Shown here piece after piece: positions 2,220 to 31,585 of a DNA stretch of 33,018 nt. Below the pieces are notes generated by a model, which was not told the DNA's origin, did not search any database, and was given only the letters and a program-made list of their open reading frames with translations. Source of the DNA: Chitinophaga pinensis (GTDB taxonomy: Bacteria > Bacteroidota > Bacteroidia > UBA4408); contig CAMBZU010000038.1 in NCBI GenBank assembly GCA_945872355.1, positions 1 to 33,018 on the forward strand, read 5' to 3'. A program made the translations under genes and the position numbers. The stretch's first letter is position 1. Each line of letters opens with the position of its first letter.

Positions 2220-2594
2220 TTATTTAAAACTTGGAATAGCCTCTTTAGCTTTTTGAGCTCCCTTTTCGGCAACTTTTTTATTGTATTCAGCTAATGTTAA
2301 ATGGTTGTCCTCGTCTAAAGAACGATATTTCCTATCTGCTTTTATGTACATGACTTCAATTTTTACTCCATACGCCTCTTCGTACCTTTTTTCAAAAGTA
2401 CCTACGTTCATTGATGCGTTGGTTGATAATTCACTTTCTGATTTCTTAGCACGTATCGATGCATGTGTTACATCCCATGAGTTTGCGCCCCCTTCTTTAT
2501 TATAAAACCTAAGCCATAAATAAGGAAATTTACTTGTAAACTCATTTGCAACTGATTTTAATAATTTATTGCCTGTAAATGATATTTCTGCCAT
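2220..2594 (-). CDS. Single-domain paralogue of the Lcl-protein N-domain
   Basis: 124 residues, no signal peptide. It aligns over its length with residues 1-110 of the protein at 151-894, including FPYLWLRFYN, SWDVTHASIRAK, STNASMNVGTFEKRY and YRSLDEDNHLTLAEYNK. The C-terminal 20 residues are Lys/Ala-rich. This shows the domain can stand alone. The family name and role are unknown to me. The gene for a 39-residue basic peptide lies 72 bases upstream on the same strand and may be co-transcribed. Confidence 0.8.
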   Translation of the reverse strand: MAEISFTGNKLLKSVANEFTSKFPYLWLRFYNKEGGANSWDVTHASIRAKKSESELSTNASMNVGTFEKRYEEAYGVKIEVMYIKADRKYRSLDEDNHLTLAEYNKKVAEKGAQKAKEAIPSFK

Positions 2595-19220: not shown

Positions 19221-19227
19221 AATTGTG

Positions 19228-19362
19228 CTTTTCTGTTTTTGTGCGGGCTAAATAAAATTTATTTTAAATAGTAAACATCGCATACTTACTAATTGATATT
19301 CGGTTTCAACTCATTTTGCTATTAGCTTAGGAAGTTCTAATTGGCTTTAGTGCTGGCAAAAC
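19228..19362. repeat. Dispersed repeat block a, copy 1
   Basis: About 135 bases that recur with a handful of changes at 19474-19608, and in part at 31051-31168. Shared landmarks: ACATCGCATAC, ACTAATTGATATTCGG, CAACTCATTTTGCTATTAGC, TTAGGAAGTTCTAA and GGCTTTAGTGCTGGCAAAAC. No ORF. It opens the 1.1-kb gene-free stretch 19221-20312. Confidence 0.9.
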
Positions 19363-19473
19363 AAAAAAAAGTGTCATTCAGTAGGAAACTTTTTAAAAGT
19401 AAGCGATTAAGGAAAATTTTAAGATGCAAAGTTTTAAGCTTGCATAAAATAAGTGCCTAAATTATTAATGCAA
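19363..19473. repeat. Degenerate copy of repeat block b
   Basis: Begins AAAAAAAAGTGTCATTCAG and then GGAAACTTTTTAAAAGTAAGCG as in the better copies at 19879 and 31181, then diverges while keeping an AAAATAAGTGCCTAAATTATTAATGC version of AAAATCAGCGCATAATTTATTAATGC. This is an older, shortened copy. Confidence 0.7.
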
Positions 19474-19608
19474 GCTTATCCGTTTTTGTGCTCTTAAAAT
19501 AAAATTTATTTTAAACAGTCAACATCGCATACCTACTAATTGATATTCGGTTCCAACTCATTTTGCTATTAGCTTAGGAAGTTCTAAGTGGCTTTAGTGC
19601 TGGCAAAA
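19474..19608. repeat. Dispersed repeat block a, copy 2
   Basis: Direct repeat of 19228-19362, nearly identical over 135 bases, ending in the same GGCTTTAGTGCTGGCAAAAC. It is followed by a palindrome (CTTACTTTTTTT / AAAAAAAGTAAG, 19609-19636). Confidence 0.9.
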
Positions 19609-19652
19609 CTTACTTTTTTTAAGAAAAAAAAGTAAGCAAAAAATAGGTGGAA

Positions 19653-19798
19653 TCGATAAAACAAGGCAATTGTCATCAAAGCATTAGCATGCTTGGATGA
19701 CACCGCAGCTCATTGTTCGCATTTGATAAATATAGTGCTACATGTATTAGTTTTATAGTCCATGCTCTGCAACGACTGCTATTGCTGCGTTTTATCGA
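19653..19798. repeat. Inverted-repeat element with internal hairpin; carries the uninterrupted MITE target
   Basis: TCGATAAAAC at 19653-19662 is the exact complement of GTTTTATCGA at 19789-19798. Between them 19672-19701 forms a strong hairpin (GTCATC..AAGCA / TGCTT..GATGAC). The right arm GCTGCGTTTTATCGACACG is the empty version of the site that is split by an insertion at 20067 and 31370. Confidence 0.75.
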
Positions 19799-19878
19799 CA
19801 CGTTTCAATTGAAGCATTTAAGGTAAATTGAACGAATAATGTTATTGTTGATCGGATAAATGATTTCTTATGAAAGAT

Positions 19879-20240
19879 AAAAAAAAGTGTCATTCAGGAG
19901 GAAACTTTTTAAAAGTAAGCGTTTGATTTAAAAATTAAAATATAAAGGTTTGAGCTAGCACAAAATCAGCGCATAATTTATTAATGCGAGTCAACATCTA
20001 AAAAAGATTCCTCCTGAAAGACAAAAAAGTACATGCGCTACAATGACTGCTATTGCTGCGTTTTATACCAATTGCATTTATTTTTTAGTCCAAAAAAAAT
20101 AAATATGCAATGGTTAATGCCGATACTACTTGAAATTAGTACAATAAGGTAATGCCACAATTGGACTAAATTGAAAGTGTAATCGGTATTATCGACACGT
20201 TTCAATTGAAGCATTTAAGGTAAATTGAACGAATAAATTT
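19879..20240. repeat. Composite repeat block b, copy 2 (contains a MITE)
   Basis: About 360 bases repeated with roughly 90 percent or more identity at 31181-31540. Internal features: an inverted pair GTCATTCAGGAGGAA (19889-19903) and TTCCTCCTGAAAGAC (20008-20022); the GCTATTGCTGCG segment; the inserted element at about 20065-20190; and a right end TTTCAATTGAAGCATTTAAGG also present at 19803-19823. It holds no coding sequence. Confidence 0.9.
20065..20190. mobile_element. MITE-like insertion, about 125 bp
   Basis: The ends are imperfect inverted repeats of about 30 bp: ATACCAATTGCA...TTTAGTCCAA on the left, and the complement of the right end reads AATACCGATTACA...TTTAGTCCAA. Flanks GCTATTGCTGCGTTTTAT and TTATCGACACGTTTCAATTG are joined without the element at 19779-19810. 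The overlap of the flanks implies a 2-4 base target duplication within TTAT. There is no ORF, so movement would need a transposase in trans. Confidence 0.8.
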
Positions 20241-20312
20241 TTACTAGTAAGATAAAGGATAAGCGTTTAGATTAAAAAAATAAAGGTTAAGCTTAGATAA
20301 AACTGGTTTATA

Positions 20313-25380: not shown

Positions 25381-25402
25381 GCTTTGCCACTAGTGGCAAA
25401 GC
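25381..25402. repeat. Perfect 22-bp palindrome
   Basis: GCTTTGCCACT and its exact complement meet at 25391/25392. It directly abuts the 34-base repeat at 25401. Confidence 0.85.
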
Positions 25403-25434
25403 GTTGTGGGGTCAAATTATTTTTGCAATCAATA
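25401..25434. repeat. 34-base dispersed repeat, copy 1
   Basis: GCGTTGTGG, two variable bases, then TCAAATTATTTTTGCAATCAATA. It recurs at 28828-28861 with two differences, and its right half again near 30169. Confidence 0.85.
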
Positions 25435-27803: not shown

Positions 27804-28163
27804 TTATTCTTTTTTTAACTCATCCAATTTTTTATTTGTCTCGCTGTCATAAGACATTAAACGGTCAGTCTTAGGGTCATAAGTAAAATAAACCATTTTT
27901 CCGTCCAAAATTGCAATTAACTTTTGGTTTTTAGCGTCAAATAAAGCACTCCATCTTTCATCAGGTGCTTTTGTTCTGGAAACTTCAAATCCATTTCCCT
28001 TTTTAGAAATAGTCAAATGCGATATTATTCCTTCTGGTTTTTCGGGAGTAATAACCCATTTACTTATAAACTTTTCGCTTTGTGCGATTGAAGTTTTTGA
28101 TGACAGTAAACATACTGTTAGGGCAAAGAATGCCACTCTTAAAGATAAATTGATTTTTTTCAT
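27804..28163 (-). CDS. Small exported protein
   Basis: 119 residues from the ATG at 28163 (MKKINLSLRVAFFALTVCLLSSKTSIAQ, a clear signal peptide). A longer reading frame to 28304 runs into the intron-like sequence and is not credible. The mature 90 residues contain W.ITPEKPEGIISHLTISKKGNGFEVSRTK and LIAILDGKMVYFTYDPKTDRLMSYD, a beta-rich pattern of the kind seen in small secreted lipocalin-like proteins; no family is assigned. It is preceded by a 24-base sequence that also precedes the divergent gene at 29395. Confidence 0.8.
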   Translation of the reverse strand: MKKINLSLRVAFFALTVCLLSSKTSIAQSEKFISKWVITPEKPEGIISHLTISKKGNGFEVSRTKAPDERWSALFDAKNQKLIAILDGKMVYFTYDPKTDRLMSYDSETNKKLDELKKE

Positions 28164-28194
28164 TGTTGTTTTTTTTTTTATGCTACGTTTTTTA

Positions 28195-28218
28195 GAGTGG
28201 GTTCTGGTCTCCACTTTT
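28195..28218 (-). repeat. 24-base inverted repeat, left arm
   Basis: On the minus strand this reads AAAAGTGGAGACCAGAACCC plus ACTC. It matches 29326-29349 on the plus strand in 23 of 24 positions. Each arm lies upstream of a small exported-protein gene; together they bracket the 1.1 kb with the intron remnant. Confidence 0.9.
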
Positions 28219-28267: not shown

Positions 28268-28815
28268 ATAGTCGAGTAGGCAAGGGGAAATTACCCCAAG
28301 CCACTCACAGAAACGTACTTGGTAGTTTCCCATCATACGGATCTTAAGTTGATTGTTAGTGGTTACAGTGATTTTACAAATGTAGTTGTTCTAATTAACA
28401 TCATCAAATCAATCTGCTATCCCCTTCGCTCCGTTCACATTAAAGGAGTTTCATCGCTACTACTAAGTAGTCCGCCATCTTATGAAATATCGATATTCAG
28501 TCTTGTATTTTTATGTTCTTGTACTTTTCTCTTAATACTTTCATAAGACACCCACAGTTCCCTTCAAAAGCACGCACAGGATTCTTGCCTCCTCCGTGAC
28601 GTCTTTCATGCAGCCAATAAGCAGATAATCGCTGCGCTAGTACATGTGCGCAACTCACCAGAAGTTTTGACAGAGTTACCGTTTTTTCGACATTTCATCA
28701 GAGGTTCACTTGCGTTCAACTCTCCCATTCTCACCTGACACGTCAGGCATGCCTTTTCTATAGCTATTCAACACCGCTTAGTCATCCAAGAGGCACCGCA
28801 GTGTGGTTTGTTAAC
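28268..28815 (-). mobile_element. ORF-less, decayed group II intron
   Basis: Read on the minus strand, the 3' part has a domain-V-like hairpin (28310-28343: GATCCGTATGATGGGAAACT then ACCAAGTACGTTTC), then a domain-VI-like hairpin GAGTGGCTTGGGG / CCCCTTGCCTACTC (28274-28306), and ends near CGACTAT. Upstream, phrases such as GTGTCAGGTGAGAATGGGAG, GCAAGTGAACCTCTGATGAA, AAAACTTCTGGTGAGTTGCG and GGAACTGTGGGTGTCTTATG resemble group II intron domain I-III segments. Active domain V carries the catalytic AGC in GAGCCG; here it is GATCCG and the partner strand reads GTACGTTTC instead of GTACGGTTC, breaking two pairs. No reverse transcriptase is encoded. The 5' boundary near 28800 is uncertain. Confidence 0.75.
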
Positions 28816-28840
28816 CCTGTCGGCATAGCGTTGTGGATTC

Positions 28841-29020
28841 AAATTATTTTTGCAATCAATACCTAAGTCATAATAATTACTTTTGACAAAAATCTACAGG
28901 TTATAATTAATTCTAAAAGTATAAATTATTGATAAATTTAAGAATTTTTAAAGTGCTAAGTTTTGTAACACAAGCCAAGCTGCGGATAGTTGTTGGTATG
29001 CGGCAGCGAGGTAATTTCTT
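28841..29020. repeat. 180-bp dispersed repeat, copy 1
   Basis: Shares with 30169-30353 the run AAATTAT.TTTGCAATCAAT, TTACTTTTGA, AAAGTATAAATTATTGATAAA, GTGCTA and AACACAAGCCAAGCT in the same order, with many substitutions. No ORF. The rest of the gap to 29325 holds nothing I can name. Confidence 0.75.
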
Positions 29021-29325: not shown

Positions 29326-29349
29326 AAAAGTGGAGTCCAGAACCCACTC
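29326..29349 (+). repeat. 24-base inverted repeat, right arm
   Basis: AAAAGTGGAGTCCAGAACCC followed by ACTC: complement of 28195-28218 with one mismatch. It could itself fold (AGTGG / CCACT) in the leader of the lipoprotein gene. Confidence 0.9.
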
Positions 29350-29374
29350 AAATAAACGGACATAATAAAAAACG

Positions 29375-29390
29375 TGGCGACTACGCAAAA
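29375..29390 (+). repeat. 16-base leader sequence shared with the gene at 894
   Basis: TGGCGACTACGCAAAA, identical to the complement of 900-915. It sits directly before the ATG at 29395. Confidence 0.85.
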
Positions 29391-29394
29391 AAAA

Positions 29395-29931
29395 ATGAAA
29401 AAAACAATATCAAACTTTGTATTGATTTGCTCAATAGCAATTTTCTTTACATCATGTGTATCAACTAACAAGGGATTTCAGTCATCTCCAGTAATTTCTA
29501 GAAATGTTCAATTAGACCCTATAAAAGCAGATATCAAAGTAAACGAAACAACTAAACTTTCAGGTCAAAGTTCAAGTACATATTTTTTATTTTTCAGAGT
29601 AAGTGGCGATAATACTTCTGCGGATGGAATCAATTACAGTACTGATGGTGGTGGTTCAATATTAAGTCAATACAATCCATTAAAACTGATGAAAACAGCT
29701 AAACTAAACAAAGTAAGATCGGCTGCTGCATATAAAGCGCTATCTACCGGAGATTATGACTTTTTAGTGCATCCAAATTACACTATGACCACAAAAAATT
29801 ATTTAGGTCTTGTGAAAATTTATGAATGTACAGTTGTAGGGTATGGTGCAAAATATCAAAACTTTAGAACAGAAAAGCAAAAAATTGTAATTTTTCAAGA
29901 AGGTAAAGAGATCATACTCCAAGACAAGTAG
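29395..29931 (+). CDS. Lipoprotein of unknown function
   Basis: 178 residues from ATG 29395; an in-frame GTG at 29374 lies in the shared leader and is less likely. MKKTISNFVLICSIAIFFTSC is a lipoprotein signal with lipobox FTSC. The mature part has VQLDPIKADIKVNETTKLSG, TYFLFFRVSGDN.SADGINY, LNKVRSAAAYKALSTGDYDFLVHPNYTM and KIYECTVVGYGAKYQNF. This order (a short beta region, an AAAYxAL helix, then a YxVxGYxAK strand) is seen in small outer-membrane or periplasmic lipoproteins of Bacteroidota. The role is unknown. An inverted-repeat site follows its stop. Confidence 0.8.
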   Translation: MKKTISNFVLICSIAIFFTSCVSTNKGFQSSPVISRNVQLDPIKADIKVNETTKLSGQSSSTYFLFFRVSGDNTSADGINYSTDGGGSILSQYNPLKLMKTAKLNKVRSAAAYKALSTGDYDFLVHPNYTMTTKNYLGLVKIYECTVVGYGAKYQNFRTEKQKIVIFQEGKEIILQDK

Positions 29932-30054: not shown

Positions 30055-30168
30055 ATTTTAGCTTCAAACCATTATAACCAAAATAATTTCGTTATTTTCT
30101 TGAAATGAATTACATTTTAGCAAGAAAATAGAAGCCCCCCTCCCGCTGTTGGTTAAGTATTATGGGTA

Positions 30169-30353
30169 TTAAATTATGTTTGCAATCAATTAGGTTATTA
30201 TACTTTTTACTTTTGATAAACAAGTATAGCTTATAAGCTCATTTTAAAGTATAAATTATTGATAAAATTAAGCACTTTTGAAGTGCTATTTATTGCAACA
30301 CAAGCCAAGCTATTGATAGCAATCGGTATGTGGCTGCTGGTGAAGTAGGTAAA
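30169..30353. repeat. 180-bp dispersed repeat, copy 2
   Basis: Diverged direct copy of 28841-29020 (see there). Together with the inverted-repeat site it accounts for most of the gap 29932-30408. Confidence 0.75.
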
Positions 30354-31032: not shown

Positions 31033-31050
31033 GTATTGCTTTAGGCATTA

Positions 31051-31168
31051 TGTTCATCTGTTTTTACTAAAAAATTAAAATTATGTTTTGAACATCGTAT
31101 GCATACTAATTGATATTTGGTTCCAACTCATTTTGCTATTAACTTAGGAAGTTCTAATTTGCTTTAAA
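31051..31168. repeat. Dispersed repeat block a, copy 3
   Basis: Keeps ACTAATTGATATTTGGTTCC, AACTCATTTTGCTATTAACT and TTAGGAAGTTCTAATT as in 19228-19362, with a diverged left end. Confidence 0.85.
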
Positions 31169-31180
31169 TCCTTAAAGACA

Positions 31181-31540
31181 AAAAAAAATATGTCATTCAG
31201 GAGGAAACTTTTTAAAAGTAAGCTTTTGATTTAAAAATTAAAATATAAAGGTTTGAGCTGGCACAAAATCAGCGCATAATTTATTACTGCGAGTCAACAT
31301 CTAAAAATGATTCCTCCTGAAAGACAAAAAAGTACATGCGCTACAAAGATTGCTATTGCTGCGTTTTATACCAATTGCATTTATTTTTTAGGCCAAATAA
31401 AAAATAAATATGCAATGGTTAATACCGATACTACTTGAAATTAGTAAAATAAGGGAATTTCGCAATTGGACTAAATTGAAAGTGTAATCGGTATTACCGA
31501 CACGTTTCAATTAAAGCAATTAAGGTAAATTAAAGAATAT
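31181..31540. repeat. Composite repeat block b, copy 3 (contains a MITE)
   Basis: About 360 bases in the same order as 19879-20240, with scattered substitutions: TGTCATTCAGGAGGAAACTT, GTTTGAGCTGGCACAAAATC, ATTCCTCCTGAAAGACAAAA, GCTATTGCTGCG, the inserted element, then GACACGTTTCAATTAAAGCA. No coding sequence. Confidence 0.9.
31368..31495. mobile_element. MITE-like insertion, second copy
   Basis: Same element as at 20065-20190, at the same point in the host repeat (GCTGCGTTTTAT | ACCAATTGC ... AATCGGTATT | ACCGACACG). The left inverted repeat has drifted (TAGGCC against TAGTCC). This shows the composite was duplicated after the insertion. Confidence 0.8.
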
Positions 31541-31585
31541 ATTTATTACTGATTTGATAATGGATAAGCGTAAACTATTAAATAG

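What the first reader, a model, noticed from the sequence alone, without database searches (positions are those of the whole stretch)
28268..28815. ORF-less group II intron with a mutated catalytic triad
The minus strand carries recognisable domain V and VI hairpins and several domain I-III phrases of a bacterial group II intron in about 550 bp, with no reverse transcriptase. The domain V AGC is changed (GAGCCG to GATCCG) and the partner strand lost its complement, so the ribozyme is probably dead or would need compensation. It sits between two divergent exported-protein genes.
Basis: partly seen in the sequence, partly recalled or inferred. Interest (0 to 1): 0.7.

Follow-up and report, generated by a model that had tools for sequence, protein, structure and literature searches.

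The report
Dead, headless group II intron remnant
This is the decayed remnant of a self-splicing mobile RNA (a group II intron) that has lost its protein gene, its front end and a key catalytic base; such dead copies are common in bacteria, so it is ordinary, though a handful of intact protein-less relatives turned up in other genomes of the same class.

Summary
Window 28831-28271 (minus strand) is a group II intron. Rfam Intron_gpII scores 41.3 bits against a cut-off of 40, and a profile of intact relatives matches domains I-III at E=2.9e-60 and V-VI at 4e-18. Domain IV is only about 75 nt, with no reverse transcriptase (RT). The catalytic AGC of domain V reads AUC, and its pairing partner also changed, giving two adjacent mismatches; 67 of 69 distinct relatives keep AGC.

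The first ~83 profile positions (5' splice site plus a hairpin kept in most relatives) are absent here and nowhere else in the window. They are replaced by a 40-nt non-intron repeat that occurs elsewhere in the window. Paired positions are worse kept than in 27 relatives. No RT domain and no second intron were found in the 96%-complete genome. It is a dead remnant that can neither splice nor move.

The closest relative is an RT-bearing intron (68% identity; grouping support 95/97). Other ORF-less relatives, several apparently intact, occur in five other families of the class. At least two of the ORF losses look separate. This is a known kind of element; interest is low.

The parts
28271..28831 (-). 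group II intron remnant (5'-truncated, ORF-less); left edge is the 3' intron end (..CUACUCGAC), right edge a truncation junction somewhere in 28822-28835
   Evidence: profile HMM match from model position 84; Rfam hit; alignment with intact relatives
28421..28831 (-). domains I (partial), II and III
   Evidence: nhmmer E 2.9e-60, model positions 84-502 of about 503
28346..28420 (-). domain IV, about 75 nt, without ORF; RT-bearing relatives have about 1300 nt here
   Evidence: distances between the two profile hits
28308..28345 (-). domain V with AGC changed to AUC (28342-28340) and partner G changed to U (28313)
   Evidence: Rfam alignment; comparison with 69 distinct domain V sequences
28271..28307 (-). 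domain VI, candidate branch-point A at 28277 still present
   Evidence: Rfam alignment
28822..28861 (-). non-intron 40-nt repeat abutting the truncation; other copies at 25395-25434 (93%) and 30152-30191 (65%), none followed by intron sequence
27804..28163 (-). gene for a small, probably exported protein downstream of the intron (119 aa); no Pfam or NCBIfam family
29374..29931 (+). divergent gene with lipoprotein-like N-terminus; no Pfam or NCBIfam family

Best explanation
A group II retro-intron related to RT-bearing introns of Bacteroidales and other bacteria once inserted here. The copy lost its RT gene from domain IV (before or after insertion) and its first ~83 profile positions including the 5' splice site (either by incomplete reverse transcription at insertion or by a later deletion). 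It then decayed by point mutation, including the catalytic triad. It cannot splice or move. Shown: homology, domain order, missing 5' end, missing ORF, triad change, elevated mispairing, no RT found in the assembled genome. Inferred: the order of events, the cause of the truncation, and the absence of activity.
For: Rfam hit above cut-off. Profile match starting only at model position 84, whereas the intact members used for the model start at 1-8 and other relatives not cut by a contig end mostly at 12-61. The separate 5' model finds nothing in the window (best E 5.2) but gives 42 matches at E<=0.01 over the collected loci. The sequence right upstream of the junction is a repeat found elsewhere without intron. 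Lowest share of canonical pairs of 28 introns in both halves under leave-one-out: 80% against mean 93% (sd 4) in I-III, 83% against mean 99% (sd 2) in V-VI. Triad AUC where 67 of 69 distinct sequences have AGC. Long terminal branch, 0.49 against 0.18 for the sister L069. No RVT_1, no other gpII hit and no second copy in the genome.
Against: The genome is a draft (133 contigs, 96.5% complete), so a multicopy RT-bearing intron could be lost at contig breaks. Some relatives (G203:C4, G079:C14) are nearly as poorly paired in domains I-III (81% and 84%) yet keep an intact domain V, so poor pairing alone does not prove death. No empty site in a close relative was found; the flanking protein is missing from the other genomes searched.
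Confidence: 0.93

Rival explanations
1. A functional non-autonomous ORF-less intron, spliced or mobilised in trans by an RT encoded elsewhere, as in Thermosynechococcus elongatus.
For: ORF-less relatives with intact AGC and 5' end exist in other genomes (G203:C7, G143:C14, G118:C61), and most of those genomes encode RTs.
Against: No RVT_1 in this genome; 5' splice site and start of domain I missing; triad mutated.
Confidence: 0.02
2. A split or circularly permuted group II ribozyme whose missing 5' piece lies elsewhere and assembles with this one.
For: Split (trans-splicing) and circularly permuted group II introns are known (PMC4424553, PMC8637638).
Against: Domain order here is canonical (I-II-III-IV-V-VI); the 5' piece is nowhere in the window; an L069 query finds only this locus in the genome; the triad is broken without compensation.
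Confidence: 0.02
3. The remnant has been co-opted as a 5' leader or regulatory RNA for the exported-protein gene at 27804-28163.
For: It is on the same strand and ends about 107 nt upstream of the ATG.
Against: Pairing is decaying rather than conserved; the intron is not found in the other genomes of the family that were searched; the gene has its own leader element, shared with two other genes, between the intron and the ATG.
Confidence: 0.03

Closest known systems
RT-bearing group II intron of a Bacteroidales MAG (JAUSOY010000008.1, locus L069)
   Same: nearest in the ribozyme tree (support 95/97), 67.9% identity over 486 aligned positions
   Different: encodes an RT in a ~1300-nt domain IV, has intact AGC; the window copy lacks ORF, 5' end and triad
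ORF-less TeI3 introns of Thermosynechococcus elongatus (PMC2882425)
   Same: group II introns with the ORF deleted from domain IV
   Different: those are multicopy, active and mobilised by host-encoded RTs, and derive from one ORF loss; this is a single dead copy in a genome without detectable RT
C.te.I1 of Clostridium tetani, described in PMC4424553 as the sole known bacterial ORF-less intron without a related intron protein in the genome
   Same: ORF-less, no RT detected in the genome
   Different: C.te.I1 self-splices; this copy lacks a 5' splice site and an intact triad
[quoted passage not shown] PMC4496777 for RmInt1)
   Same: non-functional intron remnant persisting in a bacterial genome
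   Different: PMC4496777 describes fragmentation with loss of the 3' end; here the 5' end is lost

Membership tests
group II intron (by descent) | domain V-VI covariance model match | tested here: met
   RF00029 41.3 bits against cut-off 40
group II intron (by descent) | domains I-III in canonical order upstream of V | tested here: met
   profile E 2.9e-60 on the same strand, 78 nt upstream of the domain V match
functional group II intron | catalytic triad AGC paired in domain V | tested here: not met
   AUC with U-U and C-U mismatches; 67 of 69 distinct sequences keep AGC
functional group II intron | 5' splice site (GUGYG-like) and start of domain I | tested here: not met
   profile positions 1-83 absent; no 5' match in the window, best E 5.2
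functional group II intron | splicing in vivo or in vitro | not testable with these tools
   needs RT-PCR or in vitro splicing
mobile group II intron (retroelement) | intron-encoded RT/maturase in cis | tested here: not met
   domain IV about 75 nt against about 1300 nt in RT-bearing relatives
trans-mobilised ORF-less intron | related RT elsewhere in the genome | tested here: not met
   no RVT_1 match in the own draft genome
circularly permuted group II RNA | domains V-VI placed upstream of domain I | tested here: not met
   canonical order; no 5' domain I piece downstream

The most novel reading that the evidence does not exclude
The remnant is one part of a split group II ribozyme, or has been co-opted as a leader RNA, so that it is still active or used despite the missing 5' end and altered triad.
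Probability: 0.03. Interest if true: 0.75.

Novelty: new member of a known kind. Interest (0 to 1): 0.15.

Why it matters
As a finding it is ordinary: degenerate group II introns are the rule in bacteria. Its modest value is that the search it prompted found six further ORF-less introns of one related group in five other genomes of the same class. At least two of the ORF losses look separate on the ribozyme tree, whereas the 2015 review PMC4424553 calls ORF-less bacterial introns rare. The short domain IVs of several still hold a GUCAAC..GGAGGA-like stretch seen near the ORF start in RT-bearing relatives, which would fit retention of an RT-binding site for use in trans; that reading is inference.

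Tried and rejected
Looked for a second intron copy, a remnant RT, or intron pieces elsewhere in the genome: none. Looked for the missing 5' piece anywhere in the window to test circular permutation or a split intron: none. Looked for an empty site in sister genomes through the downstream exported protein: no homologue in the 8 other genomes searched, so the cause of the truncation stays open. Tested whether ORF-less relatives form one lineage: they do not. The window groups with an RT-bearing intron, and ORF-less G118:C61 groups with RT-bearing G167 and G223. Considered G143:C14 as a second RT-less intact case; left open, because the assembly is a draft and another intron of different sequence is cut by a contig start at C27. 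Single-sequence folding of the whole element was uninformative (z -1.3). Plasmid and phage collections gave only three distant plasmid matches and none respectively. The intron's RT class (B, C, D, E, F, CL, ML) was not settled; the nearest solved RT by sequence is GsI-IIC, which does not decide it.

Full report
Observation. On the minus strand, Rfam Intron_gpII (domains V-VI) matches 28345-28271 with 41.3 bits, just above the gathering score of 40. No other group II hit, no second copy and no RVT_1 reverse transcriptase domain were found in the whole draft genome (3.40 Mb, 133 contigs, 96.5% complete). DNA relatives exist in 22 other genomes of the same class out of 395 searched. Two of the RT-bearing ones that were tested carry the standard group II maturase signature (TIGR04416, PF08388).

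Anatomy. An alignment with intact relatives and profile HMMs built from them without the window sequence place domains I-III at 28831-28421 (E 2.9e-60) and domains V-VI at 28343-28265 (E 4e-18). Between them lies a domain IV of about 75 nt, where RT-bearing relatives have about 1300 nt. The order is canonical.

Damage 1, domain V. The triad AGC is AUC (28342-28340), and the base pairing with its last C is changed as well (28313), leaving two adjacent mismatches. Of 69 distinct domain V sequences in the collected loci, 67 keep AGC.

The window matches the profile only from position 84 on. The members the model was built from start at positions 1-8 (one contig-cut copy was left out of that model), and other relatives not cut by a contig end mostly at 12-61; a few, among them G203:C4 and G203:C23, start later. 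A separate model of the first 96 positions gives 42 matches at E<=0.01 over the collected loci but nothing in the window (best E 5.2). What stands there instead, 28822-28861 and further upstream, is a repeat with other copies at 25395-25434 and 30152-30337 that carry no intron. The junction lies in 28822-28835, where intron-like and repeat-like sequence overlap in the short stretch CGCTNTGCC. Whether the truncation came from incomplete reverse transcription or later deletion is open.

Damage 3, general decay. With consensus structures computed from all other introns (leave-one-out), the window copy has the lowest share of canonical pairs in both halves: 80% in I-III (others mean 93%, sd 4, minimum 81%) and 83% in V-VI (others mean 99%, sd 2, minimum 91%). 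Two ORF-less relatives are almost as low in I-III, so this is supporting rather than decisive evidence.

Relatives and ORF loss. In a maximum-likelihood tree of the ribozyme part the window groups with the RT-bearing intron of a Bacteroidales MAG (L069; 67.9% identity; support 95/97) and sits on a longer branch than it (0.49 against 0.18). Seven ORF-less members were analysed: the window, G203:C7, G203:C4, G143:C14, G118:C61, G079:C14 and G037:C131. They do not form one clade: G118:C61 belongs with RT-bearing G167 and G223 (99.8/100), and the window with RT-bearing L069. So at least these two ORF losses look separate. G203:C7, G118:C61 and G143:C14 have intact AGC and a recognisable 5' end. 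RT domains are encoded elsewhere in G203, G118, G079 and G037 but were not detected in G143; the G143 draft has another intron cut by a contig start, so that absence is not firm.

Known context. [quoted passage not shown] PMC2882425 documents ORF-less introns mobilised by RTs in trans in T. elongatus. PMC4496777 discusses inactivation by point mutation and fragmentation, and uses a triad mutant as a splicing-deficient control. PMC8637638 describes circularly permuted group II RNAs; the window copy is not one of them (searches give the passages).

Verdict. The finding is real and its interpretation right, with one addition: the copy is 5'-truncated as well as ORF-less and triad-mutated. It is a dead remnant of a known kind of element.

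Noticed in passing
28171-28218 (-), 29326-29372 (+), and contig C26:9657-9705 of the same genome (L183): A 48-nt, 88-92% identical element with a hairpin (AAGTGGAGNCCAGAACCCACTC) lies directly upstream of three different genes for small, probably exported proteins. It may be a shared promoter or leader element; not identified.
   Followed up: partly
28822-29007, 30152-30337, 25395-25434: A diverged repeat of up to about 186 nt (65-93%) in intergenic regions. In genome-wide searches the 40-nt core was seen only in this window.
   Followed up: partly
19227-20266 and 31044-31571: Long intergenic repeats (up to 94% identical over 228 nt) containing inverted copies of TGTCATTCAGGAGGAAACTTTTT; they look like a dispersed repeat element.
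   Followed up: no
2654-2620 (-): Rfam DUF805b RNA (RF02914), 40.8 bits against cut-off 35.6, upstream of a small gene at 2220-2594 (-).
   Followed up: no
G203:C7 (L132), G118:C61 (L133), G143:C14 (L134): ORF-less group II introns of roughly 630-670 nt with intact domain V and recognisable 5' end in three different families of the class; G143 has no detectable RT in its draft genome.
   Followed up: partly
L160 (G143:C44): Another domain V with a changed triad (AGT instead of AGC).
   Followed up: no
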